Positions 1 to 7,985 of a DNA stretch of 38,278 bases are shown here, in pieces. Within the stretch, counting starts at the first letter, position 1; every line of letters begins with the position of its first letter. Position numbers and translations under genes: made by a program. The stretch is from Bacteroidota bacterium (lineage in GTDB: Bacteria; Bacteroidota; Bacteroidia; 2-12-FULL-35-15). The notes beneath the pieces were generated by a model. That model made no database searches. It was given only the letters and a program-made list of their open reading frames with translations, and had not been told where the DNA came from. The stretch is taken from the NCBI GenBank assembly GCA_023251835.1, contig JAHEXZ010000030.1, positions 1 to 38,278 on the forward strand, read 5' to 3'.

Positions 1-1059
1 TGATGGACACTTAATTGTTCCATAAGAACAAAAGACGCAGCAATCGCCCTGCTTAGGTTTTATAACTTTTTTACAATTTTCACATTCATAAAAAAACTGG
101 CAAGCATCAGTTGGCATTATTTCAGATTTCTTATGACCACAATAAGGACAGGTAATAACAGATTGAAATTTAACAGGCTTTTCTTCAACAATTGAGTTAG
201 CAATTAATTCTGTTATATCAATTCCATTTGAAGGATGTGGAATAGTATTGCAGGTAATAATTCTACCGGCTCCGGATTTCTGTAGCTTTTCAAAAGCATT
301 TCCGGCAAATACACCATGTACCCCCACACATACAGGAGGTTTCATTCCGGACTTTTTGAGATGAGTAATTGTTTCTATCATGGTTTGTGCAGTAGAAATT
401 ATATCATCCACCAATACAGGAGTATGATTCTTGTATTTTTCAACCTGCGGAACAGCAATTTTCACTTCTTTATCACCTAACCTTGTTTTTTCAAGTACGA
501 TAAAAGGAGCATTTGCATTTTTTGCTACTTCTGAAACCCATTGTTCGCTTTCCGCATCCGGCCCTATTAATAGGGGGTTACTTATATGTTCACTTATATA
601 TGATGAAATAAGACGCGAGGCATGAAGCACCTTACAAGGAATTGAATAAATTTCACCCATGGAATGTCTTCGGTGCAAATGTGGATCAATGGTAATGAGC
701 GTATCTGCAAATTCTGGAATAAGGGAAGCGAAGTATTCGGAGGTTATTCCTTCTCCCTGATTAAAAACTTTATCCTGGCGCATATAAGCAAGATAAGATG
801 CAACAAGGCAGGTAGAATCTGCCCCCAGCGATTTCAATGTTTTAGATAAAAAGTACAGAGGCAATAATTTCTCATCAGGATAAGCCAGCGTACACACCAT
901 AATGGTTTTCCTGCTTTCTACTTCGCTTAGGACACGCACGTATGTTTCTCCATCGGGGAAATGCCGTATTACGGCTTCTCCTATATCAGCCTTTATAGCT
1001 GTTGCAATACTTTTTGCAAGCATTTCATTTCCGGGTAATGCAAATACAACAGGTTTCAT
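1..1059 (-). CDS. PRPP synthetase-like protein with C-terminal GDCCVxCSYG Cys-rich domain (partial)
   Basis: I translated this gene by hand. It starts at ATG 1059 and stays open for 353 codons to the window edge, so the stop lies outside. Residues 1-300 look like ribose-phosphate pyrophosphokinase, which makes PRPP from ribose 5-phosphate and ATP: FPDGETYVRV, YLAYMRQDKVF, TIDPHLHRRHS and the PRPP loop VLVDDIISTAQTM. From about residue 305 a second unit follows without a stop: CPYCGH, MPTDACQFFYEC, CENCKK, GDCCVFCSYGTIKCPS. That unit matches a small Cys-rich family (GDCCVxC domain, some members selenoproteins) that I know as free-standing proteins of about 70 residues. The spaced CxxC pairs suggest metal binding, which is inference. 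The start overlaps the stop of the upstream phosphorylase gene by ATGA, implying translational coupling. The catalytic N-half is somewhat divergent, so it may be a paralogue rather than the housekeeping prs. Confidence 0.85.
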   Translation of the reverse strand, partial: MKPVVFALPGNEMLAKSIATAIKADIGEAVIRHFPDGETYVRVLSEVESRKTIMVCTLAYPDEKLLPLYFLSKTLKSLGADSTCLVASYLAYMRQDKVFNQGEGITSEYFASLIPEFADTLITIDPHLHRRHSMGEIYSIPCKVLHASRLISSYISEHISNPLLIGPDAESEQWVSEVAKNANAPFIVLEKTRLGDKEVKIAVPQVEKYKNHTPVLVDDIISTAQTMIETITHLKKSGMKPPVCVGVHGVFAGNAFEKLQKSGAGRIITCNTIPHPSNGIDITELIANSIVEEKPVKFQSVITCPYCGHKKSEIMPTDACQFFYECENCKKVIKPKQGDCCVFCSYGTIKCPS

Positions 1060-2570
1060 TTTTCTATACTTATAATACCGTTATCACTTTTCATATAATT
1101 TATGGCGTAATCCAACTCTCCTTTGGCTTCGGCATAAACAGTAAATAATACTTCACCCACGTTAACTTTTTTACCAAGCGGGGACAAAAATAAAATGCCT
1201 GCTGATGAAAATTTAGGAGCACCGGCAAGCTTTGCCACACGTGCCAGTTTGCGATTATCAATAGCTTTTATAAGTCCTTCCTTATCTGATAATACATCAT
1301 ATTTATATTTTGCATATACAGGTTCTCTGAATCCTCCCTGTCTTTCACAAATAGATTGAAATTTTGCCCAGGCCTTGCCGTTTTCAAGAAATTCTTTTGC
1401 AACACTGTTTCCGGTTCCTGTCGGATATTTGCCAGATAACTCCAATAATGCACCTGCCAATGTAACAGCTCTGTCTTTTAAGTCCTGCGGAGCGTTTTTT
1501 TCATTTTTTAGCACAGACAAAATATCCATTGCTTCCAATGAAGGACCTATACCTCTTCCAACCGGTTGCGAACCATCCGTTATTATTACTTTCACATGCA
1601 AATCAACTAGTTTTCCAACAGTTTCAAAATCATTCTGAAGTTTTTTAGCATCGCTGACAGATCTGACTTTAGCTGTTTCCCCAACCGGGATATCAATCAC
1701 TACATGAGTTGCACCTGCTGCGGCTTTTTTTGAAAGAACAGATGCAATCATTTGTCCTTTGCTATCCACATCCAATGATTTTTCGACTGAAATGAGAATA
1801 TCATCAGCAGGACTGAGATTTACAGCACCTCCCCAAACAATACAACCATTTTCCTTCCCCACTATTTGTTTTATTTCATTCAGCTCAAATTCCACAGAGG
1901 TCATTGTCTCCATAGTATCAGCCGTTCCGGCAGGAGAGGTAATAGCTCTTGAAGATGTTTTGGGAATGGTTAATCCTGCTGCTGAAACAATACTCACAAC
2001 AATGGGAGTTGTGCGATTGCCCGGTAATCCGCCAACACAGTGTTTATCCAAAATCATGGCGTTGTGCCATTTTATTTTTTTTCCGGCATTTATCATTGCT
2101 TTGGTTAATCCTATTATTTCATTTAACGAAAGATTTTCGCCTGAACATGCGGAAATAAAGGCTGCTAATTCAATGTTGGAGTATTTACCAGCTACCACAT
2201 CCGTTATAATGCTCTGAAAATGCAGTTCGTTTAGCTCTTTTCGATACATTTTTGCCCGTACATAGCGTAACGAATCAATGTGTTCTAAATGTGAAAAGGC
2301 TATACAGTCTCCATCCTTTACTGTTAGTCTTTTCATGGCTTCCATTGACAGGCCGGCTTCATCGTGATGTAGTAAATCTGAATGAACAACATTCAATGTT
2401 GCGATGATACTTCTGCCATTGTAATGAATTACTATCCGCGTTAATGCAGTAAACCCTTCAGATTGGCACACATGGCAATCCGAGCGCATAAAAACAATAT
2501 TTTCCCTGTAGGTGTCAATTCCTATATTTTTTACTTTTAATGTATTACTTGTATTTGAGCACTTATTCAT
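1056..2570 (-). CDS. AMP phosphorylase / thymidine phosphorylase family protein
   Basis: Member of the nucleoside phosphorylase II superfamily. The signature around DKHCVGGLPGNRTTPIVV followed by TSSRAITSPAGTADTME fits the AMP-phosphorylase-like branch (archaeal DeoA type, about 500 residues) better than the 440-residue bacterial thymidine phosphorylases. AMP phosphorylases convert NMP plus phosphate to base plus ribose 1,5-bisphosphate; the substrate here is inferred. I chose ATG 2570 (MNKCSNTSNT, 504 aa). The longer frame from 2675 adds 35 residues that lie inside the metallo-hydrolase gene and do not resemble the family. The chosen start overlaps the upstream gene by 8 bases and the stop overlaps the next gene by ATGA. 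It shares an operon with a PRPP-synthetase-like enzyme and a nuclease-type metallo-hydrolase, which suggests ribose-phosphate recycling from nucleotides. Confidence 0.85.
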   Translation of the reverse strand: MNKCSNTSNTLKVKNIGIDTYRENIVFMRSDCHVCQSEGFTALTRIVIHYNGRSIIATLNVVHSDLLHHDEAGLSMEAMKRLTVKDGDCIAFSHLEHIDSLRYVRAKMYRKELNELHFQSIITDVVAGKYSNIELAAFISACSGENLSLNEIIGLTKAMINAGKKIKWHNAMILDKHCVGGLPGNRTTPIVVSIVSAAGLTIPKTSSRAITSPAGTADTMETMTSVEFELNEIKQIVGKENGCIVWGGAVNLSPADDILISVEKSLDVDSKGQMIASVLSKKAAAGATHVVIDIPVGETAKVRSVSDAKKLQNDFETVGKLVDLHVKVIITDGSQPVGRGIGPSLEAMDILSVLKNEKNAPQDLKDRAVTLAGALLELSGKYPTGTGNSVAKEFLENGKAWAKFQSICERQGGFREPVYAKYKYDVLSDKEGLIKAIDNRKLARVAKLAGAPKFSSAGILFLSPLGKKVNVGEVLFTVYAEAKGELDYAINYMKSDNGIISIEK

Positions 2571-3945
2571 GGATCTCAACTTTTTCATTAAGTACGGGGA
2601 TCTCGCAGTCCCAACCATACACATCTTTAATTTTAACCCTGAGTGCGTCTGCTGACTGAGGTTCACCATGCACAATAAAAATTTTCTCCGGACTTTTTTT
2701 TAAATGACTCAACCAATTGATTAATTCTTTTTGATCCGCATGAGCAGATAAACCTTGTACATTTTCAATATTGGCTTTAACGTTATAATACTGTCCGTAA
2801 AGTTTGATTTCTTTAACTCCATCCAGCAGTTGTCTTCCTCTGGTACCTTCGGCCTGGTAGCCTGCAAGCAATATGGTTGCAGAATCATCTCCAAGATACT
2901 TCCGGAAATAAGCAAGCACCCGTCCACCGGAAGCCATACCGCTGCCTGCAATAACTATTTTAGCACTTTTATCAGCAATAAGCCTTATCGTTTCTTCAAT
3001 GGTTTGTATATATCTTATGTCCTTGCACATCTGGCTGCATTGGTCAGCCGGAAGTTTATGCCATTCTGTATAATGCTGAAAAATATCCAGTACATTTTTC
3101 CCCATAGGACTATCCATATATACCGGGATCTCAGGAATTTCCCCTTTTTTTCTTAACTGCCAGAGCAGATACATCAGCATTTGCGTACGTTCCACTGCAA
3201 AACTGGGTATGATAATAATGCCTTGCTTTTTTGCAGCATTATTAATTATCTCTATCAGCTGTTCTTCCGGGCGATCAGGGTGCAGGCGATCCCCGTAAGT
3301 GGATTCAATTATTAAAATATCTGCCGCTTCCGGTTTTTGTGGAGGATACATTAGTAAATCATTCTCTCGTCCTACGTCACCGGAGAAAACGATTAACTTA
3401 TTACCAATTTTCAATTCAATAAATGTTGCCCCTATAATGTGGCTATTGTACCTGAAACGAAAATAAATTTTGTCTCCTATTTCTACCCATTTATCAAGTG
3501 GCTGGGCAAAAAAATGTGGTAAAGTTTTTTCTACATCTTTTAAATCATACAAAGGCAGGGCAGGTTTGTGTTTTGAATACCCTTTTGCATTGGCTCTCTC
3601 GGCATCTTCTTCCTGAATTTTTGCACTGTCGCGTAAGATAATTTTTGTAACTTCAATCGTTGGGGAAGTTCCATAAATTAATCCCTGAAACCCTTGTTTT
3701 ACGAAACGTGGCAGATATCCAACATGATCAAGATGGCCATGTGTAAGCAAAACCAAATCTATCTTAGCAGGCTCAGCAGCAAGGGCTTCCCAATTTAATA
3801 ACCGAAGTTTTTTTAAGCCCTGAAACAAACCGCAATCAATAAGAATATTTTTTGCGGAAGTTTGAACTAGGTACTTCGAGCCAGTGACAGTTCCTGCAGC
3901 ACCTAAAAACTGAATTTTTATGTTGTTGTTTTTTGACATAATCAT
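2563..3945 (-). CDS. beta-CASP metallo-beta-lactamase fold hydrolase (RNase J/CPSF-like)
   Basis: 460 residues, a typical length for bacterial MBL-fold beta-CASP proteins of the YSH1/CPSF73 type. The metal site THGHLDHVG is at residues 68-76 (H69, H71, D73, H74). A further SGDVGRENDLL supplies the motif-III-like Asp region. The beta-CASP cap is around SFAVERTQMLMYLLW and MDSPMG, and the C-terminal RMMBL part carries GLSAHADQKEL and FIVHGEPQSA. Proteins of this group act as endo/exoribonucleases in the cytoplasm; this member's substrate is unknown. The start overlaps the ATPase stop as ATGA (3945-3942), so the two are translationally coupled. Its place between a cation pump and a nucleotide phosphorylase suggests RNA turnover feeding nucleotide salvage, which is inference. 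Confidence 0.9.
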   Translation of the reverse strand: MIMSKNNNIKIQFLGAAGTVTGSKYLVQTSAKNILIDCGLFQGLKKLRLLNWEALAAEPAKIDLVLLTHGHLDHVGYLPRFVKQGFQGLIYGTSPTIEVTKIILRDSAKIQEEDAERANAKGYSKHKPALPLYDLKDVEKTLPHFFAQPLDKWVEIGDKIYFRFRYNSHIIGATFIELKIGNKLIVFSGDVGRENDLLMYPPQKPEAADILIIESTYGDRLHPDRPEEQLIEIINNAAKKQGIIIIPSFAVERTQMLMYLLWQLRKKGEIPEIPVYMDSPMGKNVLDIFQHYTEWHKLPADQCSQMCKDIRYIQTIEETIRLIADKSAKIVIAGSGMASGGRVLAYFRKYLGDDSATILLAGYQAEGTRGRQLLDGVKEIKLYGQYYNVKANIENVQGLSAHADQKELINWLSHLKKSPEKIFIVHGEPQSADALRVKIKDVYGWDCEIPVLNEKVEIHE

Positions 3946-6572
3946 TGTTTAGCAATTCCTAACCTTTTTCCTATCTGTATTATAATAAGTGATACTATAC
4001 TTGCCGCTATTGAAACTAACCAGTCATATACTGACATTTCATATAACGATAGCACTTCCCTTACAGGAATGATAAAGTATACACTTAATAAAATCAATAT
4101 AGAAAACACAATTGCTCTCCACACATATTTATTTCTGAAAACCTCAGAACGAAAAAAAGAAGATCCGCTACTTCCCATATTAAAAACATGGAGGAGCTGA
4201 GAAAAAATAAGTGTAAAGAATAAAATATTATTGCAAAGCTCCGGGTTCCATGTTTCTGTTTTATGTATTGTAAAATGGCTGATTAAGACAGCACCTACAC
4301 TCGTTGTGCCAATGATGATGGAATAGAAGGAGATAGCGATCCACCTTTTACGATCAATGATAGGTTCATTTATATTTCTTGGAGGTTGCCGCATGATGTT
4401 GCTGCTACCTCCAGTAACACCTAATGCAAGAGCTGGCAGAACATCGGTTATAAGATTAATAAAAAGTATTTGTAATGGGAATAGCTGAAAGTGAAGATTA
4501 AAGATTGAAGCAGTGGCAATCACCATTAACTCACTGAGGTTACAGGAAAGCAGAAAAATGACGAACTTTCTTATATTATCGAATATGATGCGCCCCTGTT
4601 TAATTGCGATTACTATGGATGAAAACGAATCGTCCTTCAATACCATATCAGCTACTTCCTGTGAAACCTGTGTACCCCTTAACCCCATGGCAATACCGAT
4701 GTCGGCTTTTTTTAATGCGGGAGCATCATTTACACCATCGCCCGTCATTCCCACAATATTTTTTCTTTCCTGTAAAACAGAAACCAAATCAAGTTTCTGT
4801 TTGGGACTTACCCTTGCAAATATTTTTGTGTTCAGCCAATTTGTTTTTTCTTCTTCAGAAAGTTGCTCATAATTTTTCATCTCCTTTCCCGGTACTACTT
4901 TAGCATTATTATCCCCGACTATCCCAAGTTTCAGAGCAATGTTTTTGGCTGTAGCCGGATGATCGCCCGTAATCATTATCACATTGATACCAGCCGATTT
5001 ACATTCCTCTATTGCTGCATACACCTCTTCCCTTGGGGGATCAATCATGCCGAATAATCCGGCAAATACCAGATTCTTTGACAAGTCTTCATCTGCTGAT
5101 GTGGTTGGCTTATAGGCCCCTGCAATTACTCTTAATCCTGTATCAGCAAGTTTTTCTGCTTTTTGTAACCAATGTTCTTTCTTTTCTTTATATAGTTCGG
5201 TGATACCATTTTTTTCAAGAATATGGGTACAGCGCATTAATAATTCTTCCGAAGCACCTTTTGCATAAACGGTATACTCTTTTTCTGTTTGATGCAATGT
5301 TGCCATTATTTTAGTTTCGGAAGAAAAAGGTTCTTCCTTCGTTTTTGGAAATCTGTTCCTGTATTCCTGAATATTGATATTGTTTTTTAGGGCAAACTTC
5401 AGAAGGCCGGTTTCAAGAGGATCTCCAATTTCTTTAATCGCTCCGTTACGGTTTTGTAATTCGGCAGTATTGCATAAAACCGCAATGCAGTTGATAATTT
5501 CCAAAGCCTCTGTATTTTCAGCAGGAGTGAGGATTGAATTGACTTCTATTTTATTTTGCGTAAGGGTTCCTGTTTTATCAGTACATATTACATTGGTTCC
5601 TCCCAGAGTTTCAACTGCCGACAATTTTTTTACAATCACATTATGCCTTGCCATTTTCATCATTCCCTGTGCCAATGCCATTGTGGCTACTATTGGCAAG
5701 CCTTCAGGTATAGCTGCCACTGCCAGCGCAATAGAAGTTTCGAGCATTTCAAGTATTTTTTGCCCGTTTAAAAGTCCGGCAATAAAAATTACTACAACCA
5801 GGGCTACTGTTATCCAAATAAGTTTTTTGCTGAAATCTTCCAGTTTTTTTTCAAGAGGTGTTGCGGCCTGGTCTGCCAATTGAACCATCCGGGCAATTTT
5901 TCCAAGCTCGGTATCCATACCTGTTTCAGTAATTACCACGTAGCCGTTTCCTTTGGTAGAATATGTCCCTTTATAGACCATGTTATTTCGCTCAGCAAGG
6001 GTGATATCGGCTTGCAATTTTCCGGTTTGTTTTTCAACGGGTACAGATTCACCCGTTAATGCCGATTCATCAATTTGCAGTTGGGAGGCATTGAAAATTC
6101 TTCCATCGGCAGGAACCATATCTCCGGCTTCAATATAAACCACATCGCCCGGAACAATATCTTCAGCATTTATTTCTTCGAGTTTTTTATCCCGAAGGAC
6201 TTTAGCAGGAACAGCAGATAGTTTTTTAAGCGCATTCATGGAACGTTCCGCCTGGTATTCCATGTAAAATCCGATGATGGCATTGATAAGGATCACGATA
6301 AGAATGGCTATGCCGTCCAACCATTCTCCAAAATAAAAGGATAATCCCGCAGCAAAACACAGAAACCATACAATAGGGCTTTTGAATTGGCTCAGGAAAA
6401 TAAATCCTACATTCCTGCTTTTTTGCTCCTCTATTTTATTGAATCCATATTCCTTCAAACGTTTTTCAGTTTCAATTGATGACAAGCCATTGGTAGCATC
6501 AGACTGAAGCACATTTAGCACAACCGATGCTTCTGTAGCAAAAGGAGGAGTATTTAATCTAATGCTTCCCAT
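3942..6572 (-). CDS. cation-transporting P-type ATPase (P2A, Ca2+-type)
   Basis: 876-residue integral membrane pump with all P-type landmarks. There is an N-terminal cation-ATPase domain, TGES at 173-176 in the actuator domain, PEGLP at 289-293 in M4, phosphorylated Asp332 in DKTGTLTQN, and the hinge TGDGVNDAPALKKADIGIAMG region. M5 carries the pattern LLSCNLSEL and M6 carries NLITDVLPALALG; these match the Asn/Glu and Asn/Thr/Asp ligands of SERCA/PMR1 calcium pumps. Calcium or manganese export is therefore the likely role; Na+/K+ or H+ pumps are less likely. The first 14 bases overlap the upstream nuclease gene. Cation P-ATPases of this type are often found in bacterial stress or low-oxygen gene clusters, in line with the regulator at the head of this operon. 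Confidence 0.93.
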   Translation of the reverse strand: MGSIRLNTPPFATEASVVLNVLQSDATNGLSSIETEKRLKEYGFNKIEEQKSRNVGFIFLSQFKSPIVWFLCFAAGLSFYFGEWLDGIAILIVILINAIIGFYMEYQAERSMNALKKLSAVPAKVLRDKKLEEINAEDIVPGDVVYIEAGDMVPADGRIFNASQLQIDESALTGESVPVEKQTGKLQADITLAERNNMVYKGTYSTKGNGYVVITETGMDTELGKIARMVQLADQAATPLEKKLEDFSKKLIWITVALVVVIFIAGLLNGQKILEMLETSIALAVAAIPEGLPIVATMALAQGMMKMARHNVIVKKLSAVETLGGTNVICTDKTGTLTQNKIEVNSILTPAENTEALEIINCIAVLCNTAELQNRNGAIKEIGDPLETGLLKFALKNNINIQEYRNRFPKTKEEPFSSETKIMATLHQTEKEYTVYAKGASEELLMRCTHILEKNGITELYKEKKEHWLQKAEKLADTGLRVIAGAYKPTTSADEDLSKNLVFAGLFGMIDPPREEVYAAIEECKSAGINVIMITGDHPATAKNIALKLGIVGDNNAKVVPGKEMKNYEQLSEEEKTNWLNTKIFARVSPKQKLDLVSVLQERKNIVGMTGDGVNDAPALKKADIGIAMGLRGTQVSQEVADMVLKDDSFSSIVIAIKQGRIIFDNIRKFVIFLLSCNLSELMVIATASIFNLHFQLFPLQILFINLITDVLPALALGVTGGSSNIMRQPPRNINEPIIDRKRWIAISFYSIIIGTTSVGAVLISHFTIHKTETWNPELCNNILFFTLIFSQLLHVFNMGSSGSSFFRSEVFRNKYVWRAIVFSILILLSVYFIIPVREVLSLYEMSVYDWLVSIAASIVSLIIIQIGKRLGIAKQ

Positions 6573-7419
6573 TGTTCATCAATTTACGGCATAGCTGGTT
6601 TCCTTCCTTAAGGATCGAATCAATCCGGGAAGGGCTAATTCCAATAGCACTTAGCCGATTTTTATCTTCACAAACTTCTTTACATAACACTATGTTATTT
6701 TCTAACAGCTGTTGTTTTTCTTTTTTAGAAAGTGTAGTAAGGCAGGTAACAGGATATAACCCCAGGGTATCTATCAAATCTTTTAGGCTTCCTTGTTTAG
6801 GAAAATCCCAACCCAATAAATTAAGCCCGGCACAAGTTCCATATTGAATAGCATCGCTTGTAAAACGAGTATTTGTTACAACCCATCCCTGATGAAATTT
6901 TGTACTATGCCCCGGAAGCATTACCCATGAGGCCTCAACATCTTTAAAACGTGCCTGTATGTATAAGGGGATTTTTACATCACAAACAGTTCCCGGTTGA
7001 TTGTGATATTTACATTCAATCATAAAATGATGATGGTCTTTTTCAGCAATCACATCAATTTCATGGTTTACGCATTTACCTTTTACAATTTGTCCAACCA
7101 TTATTGCATATCCCTGGTATTTAAGAATTTCACCTACGTATTTCTCAAAGGGATAGCCTGATGGCCCTAACTCCATTATACCTCTTTTCAGATTATATCT
7201 TGCAGCCAGGATACCTGAAGTTTGCCGTAATAAATTAAATGCAATACGATAGATTTTTTTAGTTGAAATACCTTCATAAAGTTCAGAACGGACTTCATTC
7301 AAGATATTGTCAATAGTATATTCACTCGCTCCTGCTCTTTGCAGGGAAGCACGTAATTTTTCCTCTGAAAATGGAACAACCATCCCTGATGCTTTCGTGA
7401 TTAATATATTCTTTTTCAT
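6559..7419 (-). CDS. ATP-cone plus Mrr-like restriction endonuclease domain protein
   Basis: 286 residues in two recognisable parts. Residues 1-90 look like an ATP-cone, the nucleotide-sensing domain of ribonucleotide reductases and NrdR (ITKASGMVVPFSEEKLRASL, then STKKIYRIAFNLLR). Residues about 100-215 form a PD-(D/E)xK nuclease core: GYPFEKYVGEIL, then HEIDVIAE, then FMIECKYH, giving D and ExK catalytic residues, with GWVVTNTRFTSDA further on as in Mrr-type domains. The C-terminal 70 residues are helical and contain a helix-hairpin-like stretch ending in ISPSRIDSIL. It overlaps the ArsR gene by ATGA, so it is the second gene of the operon. Nucleotide-controlled DNA or RNA cleavage is the simplest reading, but no target can be inferred. 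No methyltransferase partner is nearby, so it is not a classical restriction system. Confidence 0.82.
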   Translation of the reverse strand: MKKNILITKASGMVVPFSEEKLRASLQRAGASEYTIDNILNEVRSELYEGISTKKIYRIAFNLLRQTSGILAARYNLKRGIMELGPSGYPFEKYVGEILKYQGYAIMVGQIVKGKCVNHEIDVIAEKDHHHFMIECKYHNQPGTVCDVKIPLYIQARFKDVEASWVMLPGHSTKFHQGWVVTNTRFTSDAIQYGTCAGLNLLGWDFPKQGSLKDLIDTLGLYPVTCLTTLSKKEKQQLLENNIVLCKEVCEDKNRLSAIGISPSRIDSILKEGNQLCRKLMNNGKH

Positions 7420-7730
7420 TTATTAGGATTACTCTCCATGCACTTGTTTATACTGATTGCAAGGCATCTGATTAATTCATATTCATCATTTATAAAGTAA
7501 TAAGAATTGTAACCTTCTTTTTCCTGACTCAAAACAGAACAATTTTTCATCACTATTAAATGTCTTGAAGTCTGTGGCTGAGTTAATCCAAGACTTTCCT
7601 GAATTTGTTTGACAGACATTTTCAGGATTCTTTTTCCCCCTAAGAGGCTAAGAATTTTAATCCGAACAGGATGACCCAATGCCTTCATCATTTCAGAGGC
7701 TCTGATAAAGGATTCATCAATCGTTTTCAT
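7416..7730 (-). CDS. ArsR-family winged-helix repressor
   Basis: 104 residues with the ArsR/SmtB fold: an opening helix (EMMKALGHPVRIKILSLL), the recognition helix (SVKQIQESLGLTQPQTSRHLIVMKN) and the wing (SQEKEGYNSYYFI). Such repressors respond to metals, sulfur species or redox. Here three cysteines are present (C64 just after the recognition helix, C89 and C97 in the last helix), so a thiol-based sensor is possible, but the exact metal ligand set of known groups is not evident. It is the first gene of the minus-strand operon. An AT-rich palindrome begins inside its start codon (7728-7773), as expected for autoregulation. The downstream gene overlaps it by four bases. Confidence 0.88.
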   Translation of the reverse strand: MKTIDESFIRASEMMKALGHPVRIKILSLLGGKRILKMSVKQIQESLGLTQPQTSRHLIVMKNCSVLSQEKEGYNSYYFINDEYELIRCLAISINKCMESNPNK

Positions 7731-7773
7731 ATTTGAATATTTAGATATGCAAATATATATTTACTCAAATATG
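7728..7773 (-). promoter_or_regulatory. Putative ArsR operator palindrome
   Basis: Perfect 9-bp inverted arms CATATTTGA (7728-7736) and TCAAATATG (7765-7773) surround an AT-rich centre that repeats ATATTTG-like half-sites (CAAATAT at 7750-7756). It overlaps the start codon of the ArsR gene and its upstream region. ArsR proteins typically bind such AT-rich dyads, so autorepression of the whole operon is inferred. Confidence 0.55.
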
Positions 7774-7897
7774 GCACCCATGATATTGTTCATTTAATCT
7801 GATGATTGTTATCAGCTTATGTAGAAAATTATCAACGATAATCTCGAATGGGGAATTTGTTTTAATATTACCCTAAAAGTCGCAAGTTAATTAAACA

Positions 7898-7938
7898 AAA
7901 TCCCTCAAGTTGTTGATAAAACAGTGCTTGAGGGATTT
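7898..7938. terminator. Hairpin, possible terminator
   Basis: Perfect 12-bp arms AAATCCCTCAAG (7898-7909) and CTTGAGGGATTT (7927-7938) with a 17-base loop. The stem is strong, but the loop is long and only a short T-rich stretch follows. It lies between the arsR promoter region and the transposase remnant, so it may be a terminator or a leftover part of the insertion element. Confidence 0.4.
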
Positions 7939-7985
7939 GTTTATGTCACCCAAAAGGTGAATATAGTGGTATCTAACTCACTATC

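What the first reader, a model, noticed from the sequence alone, without database searches (positions are those of the whole stretch)
1..7730. Six-gene ArsR-led operon combining nucleotide phosphorylase, PRPP enzyme, beta-CASP nuclease, ATP-cone nuclease and Ca2+ ATPase
All junctions overlap by 4-14 bases, so the genes are co-regulated. The set suggests a coordinated response that degrades nucleic acid, phosphorolyses the nucleotides and recycles ribose phosphates. An ATP-sensing cone and a cation pump are built in, and a thiol-bearing ArsR repressor controls it. I know related groupings only loosely, and this exact set may be a described stress cluster or a new one.
Basis: inference. Interest (0 to 1): 0.7.

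Follow-up and report, generated by a model that had tools for sequence, protein, structure and literature searches.

The report
Mobile nucleotide-recycling operon beside copper genes
A bacterial operon carries an archaeal-type nucleotide phosphorylase together with its own altered version of the enzyme that makes the ribose building block PRPP; the pair turns up in distant bacteria, often on plasmids and next to copper-efflux genes, and points to an unexplored way of recycling nucleotides under stress.

Summary
The six-gene operon is real: overlaps are 4, 14, 4, 8 and 4 bases, and the last gene runs off the window. A 119-base contig overlap completes that gene, then adds a phosphofructokinase and a CusA-type efflux pump. 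The fixed core is not the six-gene set but the NMP/AMP-phosphorylase-like gene (TP) plus a dedicated PRPP-synthetase-like gene (PRS). They are neighbours in 24 of 26 loci from three phyla, usually with the beta-CASP nuclease (19 of 26). This PRS subfamily occurs in 15 of 15 module-bearing genomes and 0 of 11 relatives lacking the module. TP keeps the archaeal NMP-phosphorylase signature (26 of 26). PRS keeps its catalytic residues, but its diphosphate loop changed from PDxGG to PDxES (26 of 26). Known ribose-1,5-bisphosphate (R15P) consumers (RuBisCO, R15P isomerase, PhnN) are absent from all 15. Loci are enriched for copper-efflux genes against same-genome controls. A Bradyrhizobium counterpart is published as microoxia-induced and FixK2-dependent. 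Copper(I) is published to inhibit Prs. Best reading: a mobile stress module for NMP/R15P/PRPP turnover, with a spare PRPP synthetase; chemistry untested. ArsR and the Ca2+-type ATPase are optional parts.

The parts
7803..7814 (-). TGAT-N4-ATCA palindrome (candidate CRP/FNR-family site), 84 nt before ArsR ATG
   Evidence: Exact match; 7 in window against 1.45 expected, 0 of 100 shuffles reach 7; same offset in L033 (1 mismatch) and L074. Motif chosen post hoc.
7781..7792 (-). second, one-mismatch copy of the same palindrome, 22 nt downstream
   Evidence: same offset in L071 (1 mismatch) and L074 (exact)
7729..7756 (-). imperfect palindrome ATATTTGCATATCTAAATATTCAAATAT touching the ArsR start: candidate ArsR operator
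   Evidence: 12 of 14 half-site positions pair; 1 of 600 random window stretches and 2 of 600 shuffles score as high; the block recurs before the three other head ArsRs
7416..7730 (-). ArsR-family regulator, 104 aa
   Evidence: NF033788 67 bits, cut-off 55; at the head of 4 of 26 loci
6559..7419 (-). ATP-cone + Mrr-type PD-(D/E)xK nuclease + AF1548-like C domain, 286 aa
   Evidence: PF03477, PF04471, PF22357 over cut-off; in 14 of 26 loci
3942..6572 (-). P2-type cation ATPase, Ca2+ (PMR1/SERCA)-like, 876 aa
   Evidence: best model TIGR01522 674 bits, below its 798 cut-off; close homologue (>1000 bits) in 6 of 26 loci
2563..3945 (-). beta-CASP metallo-nuclease, 460 aa, no KH domains
   Evidence: PF10996, PF07521, PF00753; 19 of 26 loci
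1056..2570 (-). TP: NMP/AMP-phosphorylase-like enzyme (PRK04350 subfamily), 504 aa
   Evidence: NF003338 682 bits, cut-off 434; TIGR03327 514, cut-off 535; PDB best hit T. kodakarensis AMPpase 4ga5; signature 26 of 26
1..1059 (-). PRS: divergent PRPP-synthetase-like enzyme (PRK07199 subfamily) fused to a C-terminal GDCCVxC domain; continues off the window to base 151 of contig C127 (L002)
   Evidence: NF005537 381 bits, cut-off 322; NF041374 95 bits, cut-off 40; loop changes 26 of 26; contig join

Best explanation
The unit is a horizontally moving stress module built on two partner enzymes. TP is an NMP phosphorylase: NMP + Pi gives a free base and ribose 1,5-bisphosphate (R15P). PRS is a dedicated second PRPP-synthetase-type enzyme on the same ribose-phosphate pool (R5P + ATP to PRPP + AMP, or the reverse), with a remodelled diphosphate loop. 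The beta-CASP nuclease, and in Bacteroidota and the chlamydial plasmid the ATP-cone nuclease, would feed NMPs from RNA or DNA; PFK, phosphoketolase/acetate kinase or GAPDH beside it in some hosts would take ribose carbon on for energy. It is switched on when energy is short, by low oxygen and perhaps by metal, and keeps PRPP and nucleotides turning over when the housekeeping Prs is limiting. Shown: anatomy, conservation, co-occurrence, residue signatures, absence of known R15P sinks, copper-gene enrichment. Published for a distant relative: microoxic, FixK2-dependent expression. Inferred: all reactions, substrates, flux direction and the trigger in this organism.
For: TP and PRS within 9 nt in 22 of 26 loci, adjacent in 24 of 26. 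PRK07199 PRS over cut-off in 15 of 15 module genomes and 0 of 11 relatives without TP, beside at least one further PRS-type hit in each. TP and PRS distances correlate (r 0.80, 0 of 2000 Mantel permutations). TP shares SSRAITSxAGTAD, GGxPGN[KR]T and other AMPpase positions in 26 of 26 (SSR as SSK in L073). PRS keeps D170, K194, R196, D220, D221, T228 equivalents 26 of 26; PDxGG became PDxES 26 of 26 (14 of 14 housekeeping have GG) and the R5P-loop glycine is never Gly (0 of 26; 14 of 14 housekeeping). Predicted fold is a PRPP synthetase. RuBisCO 0 of 26 genomes, R15P isomerase 0 of 15 module genomes, PhnN over cut-off 0 of 26. bll3117-bll3116-bll3115 (TP-PRS-MBL) induced at 0.5% O2 and FixK2-dependent. 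Copper-type genes near 6 of 16 chromosomal modules against 0 of 30 controls, and 7 of 10 plasmid modules against 3 of 19.
Against: No enzyme was assayed. TP scores below the AMP_phos equivalog cut-off (514 against 535). The fate of R15P is unexplained: no known sink in the 15 genomes. A phosphoketolase family member is absent from all 26 genomes, so the ribose-to-acetyl-phosphate route applies only to some plasmid hosts. Strict FNR boxes (TTGAT-N4-ATCAA) are not enriched upstream (1 of 25 loci within one mismatch against about 3% expected). Loci are phylogenetically related, so counts are not independent. Only 10 of 117 plasmid records were inspected. L081, a TP fragment without PRS, was dropped from the 26.
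Confidence: 0.5

Rival explanations
1. Copper target replacement. Copper(I) poisons the housekeeping Prs, so copper-resistance islands carry a spare, divergent PRPP synthetase, much as some drug-resistance plasmids carry a spare drug target; the Cys-rich GDCCVxC tail would shield or sense metal, and TP plus nuclease free ribose phosphate for it.
For: Prs inhibited by Cu(I) in vitro and in cells, PRPP falls, more prs gives more copper resistance, GapA also a target (PMC10249872). Copper-type genes beside 13 of 26 modules against 3 of 49 control stretches. PRS fused to GDCCVxC in 3 of 26, each with CusA or a CopA-type ATPase downstream. Type II GAPDH spares on 2 of 10 plasmids, 0 of 19 controls.
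Against: 13 of 26 loci have no copper-type gene within reach by this test; the Bradyrhizobium copy answers to FixK2 and oxygen; ArsR lacks a recognisable metal-binding CxC (inspection, motif recalled). Whether this PRS tolerates copper is unknown, and it keeps the active-site histidine suspected as the copper site (26 of 26). Chromosomal controls lie around housekeeping genes.
Confidence: 0.2
2. The PRS-like enzyme is no longer a PRPP synthetase but the missing R15P enzyme: it moves one phosphate instead of two (R15P + AMP to R5P + ADP, or the reverse), so that with TP two AMP and Pi give ADP, R5P and adenine.
For: Strict pairing with TP; no other R15P sink; diphosphate loop and R5P loop both changed while ATP-side and catalytic-loop residues are kept.
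Against: All R5P-contact residues named for E. coli Prs are kept (T225 as T or S); a preprint on PRPS classes argues that the PRPP reaction is preserved across classes (PMC13252144). No precedent known to me.
Confidence: 0.12
3. Anti-phage defence operon: nucleases plus nucleotide depletion.
For: Two nucleases, one with an ATP-sensing cone; mobile distribution.
Against: Only weak PADLOC hits to generic domains (best 46 bits, ArsR to Csa3); metabolic and metal neighbours; FixK2 control in Bradyrhizobium.
Confidence: 0.05
4. Ordinary spare nucleotide-salvage genes that hitch-hike on metal-resistance plasmids without joint function.
For: 117 plasmid records carry TP; plasmids gather unrelated cargo.
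Against: Four-base overlaps kept across phyla, 15 of 15 against 0 of 11 co-occurrence, congruent divergence and a subfamily-wide PRS signature.
Confidence: 0.1

Closest known systems
Thermococcus kodakarensis NMP (AMP) phosphorylase and the archaeal NMP shunt (PDB 4ga4-4ga6; PMC9700705 and PMC8376864, passages read)
   Same: It is the closest solved relative of TP, with the same active-site signature
   Different: No R15P isomerase or RuBisCO in the 15 module genomes; partnered instead by a PRS and nucleases
Bradyrhizobium diazoefficiens bll3117-bll3116-bll3115 (PMC9104804 and PMC6515984, table passages read)
   Same: TP, PRS and MBL nuclease in one predicted operon
   Different: The passages seen give expression data only and no function; no ArsR, ATP-cone nuclease, Ca2+-type ATPase or GDCCVxC tail is listed there
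PRPP synthetase classes I and III, and further bacterial classes of PMC13252144 (abstract, section 6 part 1 and passages read)
   Same: Fold and catalytic residues
   Different: PDxES diphosphate loop, non-glycine in the R5P loop, HLHR insertion; which preprint class it falls in could not be told
AF1548-like ATP-cone nuclease (PF22357)
   Same: Domains ATP-cone, Mrr, AF1548 C domain
   Different: Sits in a TP-PRS operon
beta-CASP ribonuclease aCPSF1 and type VII Cas14
   Same: Core domains
   Different: Scores far below both cut-offs (291 of 580, 396 of 800), no KH domains
E. coli PhnN, R15P kinase to PRPP
   Same: Would link the same metabolites
   Different: No PhnN over cut-off in any of 26 genomes

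Membership tests
archaeal-type NMP/AMP phosphorylase | active-site signature shared with TkAMPpase and not with conventional pyrimidine phosphorylases | tested here: met
   AITSxAGTAD, GGxPGN[KR]T 26 of 26; 13 conventional rows used, at least 1 of them a wrong ORF
archaeal-type NMP/AMP phosphorylase | over the TIGR03327 AMP_phos cut-off | tested here: not met
   514.4 against 535 bits; over the cut-offs of the sister models NF003338 and TIGR02645
archaeal-type NMP/AMP phosphorylase | phosphorolysis of NMP to R15P | not testable with these tools
   needs assay
archaeal NMP shunt (with R15P isomerase and RuBisCO) | R15P isomerase and RuBisCO in the genome | tested here: not met
   0 of 15 module genomes for both
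PRPP synthetase | catalytic and R5P/ATP residues (D170, K194, R196, D220, D221, T228, H131 equivalents) | tested here: met
   26 of 26
PRPP synthetase | Gly-containing diphosphate loop PDxG(G/A) | tested here: not met
   PDxES 26 of 26; PDxGG 14 of 14 housekeeping, PDKGA in M. jannaschii
PRPP synthetase | fold | tested here: met
   Foldseek top 50 listed hits are all PRPP synthetases, best E 2e-24
anti-phage defence system | match to known defence proteins as a set | tested here: not met
   weak single-domain hits only
type VII CRISPR Cas14 | over the NF045584 cut-off | tested here: not met
   396 against 800 bits
ArsR/SmtB metalloregulator | family profile | tested here: met
   NF033788 67 against 55 bits
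ArsR/SmtB metalloregulator | metal-binding CxC in the recognition helix (motif recalled) | tested here: not met
   sequence inspection
Ca2+ P-type ATPase, PMR1 type | over the TIGR01522 cut-off | tested here: not met
   674 against 798 bits; ion specificity not testable

The most novel reading that the evidence does not exclude
The module is a bacterial R15P cycle without RuBisCO. TP turns NMP and phosphate into R15P, and its obligate partner, a PRPP synthetase retuned in its diphosphate loop to carry one phosphate, passes it to AMP (R15P + AMP to R5P + ADP). The cell would rescue its adenylate energy charge by sacrificing part of its own RNA and nucleotides when oxygen runs out or copper blocks metabolism.
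Probability: 0.12. Interest if true: 0.85.

Novelty: new variant of a known kind. Interest (0 to 1): 0.6.

Why it matters
R15P chemistry is mainly known from archaea with RuBisCO. Here a mobile bacterial module keeps the R15P-forming type of enzyme without any known consumer, next to an enzyme changed at the loop that handles the diphosphate. Two purified proteins would settle it. If the copper reading holds, resistance islands carry replacement metabolic enzymes as well as pumps.

Tried and rejected
Phosphoketolase as general sink for the ribose: 0 of 26 genomes, kept only for some plasmid hosts. PhnN as R15P sink: only weak hits, 25-58 bits against 156, probably guanylate kinases (recalled). 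A strict FNR/FixK box upstream: no enrichment; the TGAT-N4-ATCA form was then chosen after seeing the upstream regions (exact in 5 of 18 loci against 1.6% expected; 3 of 14 without the four loci that suggested it, and two of those three had already shown), so it is a lead. Defence system: PADLOC weak. R15P as activator of phosphofructokinase: recalled from mammalian work, literature search empty; PFK is in only 3 of 26 loci, so not claimed. The first housekeeping PRS set held wrong ORFs and was redone. Literature: searches found no paper that assigns a function to the TP-PRS pair, as far as their listings and the passages I read show; subscription papers and most preprints are not in that library.
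Full report
Observation. The six minus-strand genes of window 1-7730 are as described: ArsR 7730-7416, ATP-cone/Mrr nuclease 7419-6559, P-type ATPase 6572-3942, beta-CASP nuclease 3945-2563, phosphorylase (TP) 2570-1056, PRPP-synthetase-like PRS from 1059. Overlaps are 4, 14, 4, 8 and 4 bases. PRS leaves the window. Contig C127 of the same genome starts with the 119 bases that end this contig, completes PRS to 363 aa with the sequence end (..CC) also seen in two relatives, and goes on to a 328-aa phosphofructokinase after 18 nt and a CusA-type RND gene after a further 23 nt. The genome has a second PFK elsewhere. The join is an assembly inference, strengthened by the TP-PRS-PFK order in L033.

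What is conserved. I compared 26 loci: the window, 4 named Bacteroidota loci, 11 loci from 10 further unnamed relatives and 10 of the 117 plasmid records that hold a TP match, covering Bacteroidota, a chlamydial plasmid and Proteobacteria. A 27th, L081, holds only a 289-aa TP fragment and no PRS and was dropped. TP and PRS are in all 26: within 9 nt in 22, adjacent in 24; in L036 one gene lies between, and in L046 PRS lies upstream of TP with two genes in between (L043 by its annotated start). In L070 and L073 the two are neighbours with gaps of 190 and 171 nt. Beta-CASP is in 19, the ATP-cone nuclease in 14, a close Ca2+-type ATPase in 6, a head ArsR in 4, PFK in 3. Among 26 genomes searched, the PRK07199 PRS subfamily is over cut-off in 15 of 15 with TP and 0 of 11 without, and every module genome has at least one further PRS-type hit. 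TP over its cut-off is rare: 1 of 148 genomes drawn across the phylum and 11 of 198 relatives, patchy within the genus. Pairwise distances of TP, PRS and beta-CASP correlate (r 0.80-0.85, 0 of 2000 permutations each); PRS with the cone protein less so (r 0.44, 17 of 2000). This fits joint horizontal movement.

TP. The closest solved structure is T. kodakarensis AMP phosphorylase (4ga5, 362 bits), which the literature reports to turn NMPs and phosphate into base and R15P (PMC8376864, PMC9700705, passages). All 26 TPs share its AITSxAGTAD and GGxPGN[KR]T motifs, which most conventional phosphorylases of the phylum lack (at least one of the 13 conventional rows was a wrong ORF). It scores slightly below the AMP_phos equivalog cut-off, so membership in that exact equivalog is not claimed.

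PRS. Equivalents of E. coli D170, D220, D221, T228 and human K194, R196 (contacts as given in PMC9232217 and PMC12238573) are kept in 26 of 26, T225 as T or S. But PDxGG, present in 14 of 14 housekeeping relatives, is PDxES in 26 of 26, and the glycine before T228 is Gly in 14 of 14 housekeeping and in 0 of 26 module proteins. That this stretch is the diphosphate (PP) loop is recalled from the B. subtilis structure; the paper passage names the loop but not its residues. The AlphaFold model (mean pLDDT 80; the tail is poorly predicted) matches PRPP synthetases. A 2026 preprint defines many bacterial PRPS classes and holds no mention of thymidine phosphorylase or 'genomic context' (find in main text). 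Fusion to the GDCCVxC domain occurs in 3 of 26.

Missing sink. RuBisCO is in 0 of 26 genomes, R15P isomerase in 0 of 15 module genomes (4 of 11 others have sub-cut-off hits), PhnN over cut-off in 0 of 26, phosphoketolase in 0 of 26. If TP makes R15P, PRS is the obvious candidate to receive it directly or indirectly.

Context. With queries from other loci only, copper-type genes (CopA-like, CusA/B, multicopper oxidase, four-helix copper protein) lie near 6 of 16 chromosomal modules against 0 of 30 stretches around housekeeping genes of the same genomes (Fisher p 0.0009), and 7 of 10 plasmid modules against 3 of 19 other stretches of the same plasmids (p 0.006). Relatedness makes these p-values optimistic. 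Some control stretches were short (6-15 kb). In B. diazoefficiens bll3117-bll3116-bll3115 are TP, PRS and MBL nuclease: induced at 0.5% oxygen at transcript level 5.1, 7.7 and 15.4-fold and protein level log2 2.1, 4.4 and 2.9 (PMC6515984 table). bll3117 and bll3115 fall 6.6 and 30.6-fold without FixK2, with a FixK2-type motif before bll3117 (PMC9104804 table). The older direct-regulon column of PMC6515984 marks them as not included. Phosphoketolase, acetate kinase, oleate hydratase and universal stress proteins, which I met beside plasmid modules, are in the same FixK2 table.

Copper. In S. aureus Cu(I) abolishes Prs activity in vitro at 5 uM, PRPP falls by about half in copper-treated cells and prs dosage sets copper resistance (PMC10249872, abstract, sections 12 and 14). 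A second, divergent PRS in copper islands, sometimes with a Cys-rich tail, is what target replacement would look like. But its active-site histidine is kept, and its copper tolerance is unknown.

Control region. Upstream of ArsR lie a 28-base imperfect palindrome at the start codon, recurring in part before all four head ArsRs, and one exact plus one near TGAT-N4-ATCA site at -84 and -62. The window holds 7 such sites against 1.45 expected, two of them before hemerythrin and DUF2249-ScdA-hemerythrin genes. I read this as possible dual control, by ArsR and by a CRP/FNR-type regulator of low oxygen or nitric oxide; the motif was picked post hoc and the strict FNR form was not enriched.

Verdict. 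A real, conserved, mobile module whose core is TP-PRS with a nuclease. Its chemistry is likely NMP/R15P/PRPP turnover under low oxygen and metal stress, the direction and the PRS reaction being open. Confidence 0.5 in the whole explanation; higher, about 0.85, that TP and PRS work together.

Noticed in passing
L082 1180-4372 (contig C127), L034 12396-15550, L035 12369-15524: The CusA-type RND pump behind the module is split into two ORFs (421+631, 422+627, 422+627 aa) at the same place, after DAGIVMVENAMK, in three genomes, but intact (1055 aa) in L073. Possibly a two-piece CusA.
   Followed up: partly
window 20824, 29987, 33696, 7803: TGAT-N4-ATCA palindromes before hemerythrin, DUF2249-ScdA-hemerythrin and other genes of a region with molybdopterin genes: possible local CRP/FNR-type regulon.
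   Followed up: partly
L071 7903-8562, L073 9292-9957, L034 8961-10022: A related-looking protein with no Pfam hit for the L071 and L034 copies (L073 not scanned) between the ATPase and beta-CASP or TP in several modules.
   Followed up: partly
L081 9997-10866: TP reduced to 289 aa with no PRS in genome G002: likely decaying copy.
   Followed up: no
L035 15575-17343: Stand-alone GDCCVxC protein beside a MerT-like/HMA protein (label recalled) and an ArsR; GDCCVxC proteins were found in 9 of 15 module-bearing genomes or plasmids searched.
   Followed up: partly
window 7895-7940: Inverted repeat CCCTCAAG..CTTGAGGG upstream of the operon, possibly a terminator of neighbouring transcription.
   Followed up: no
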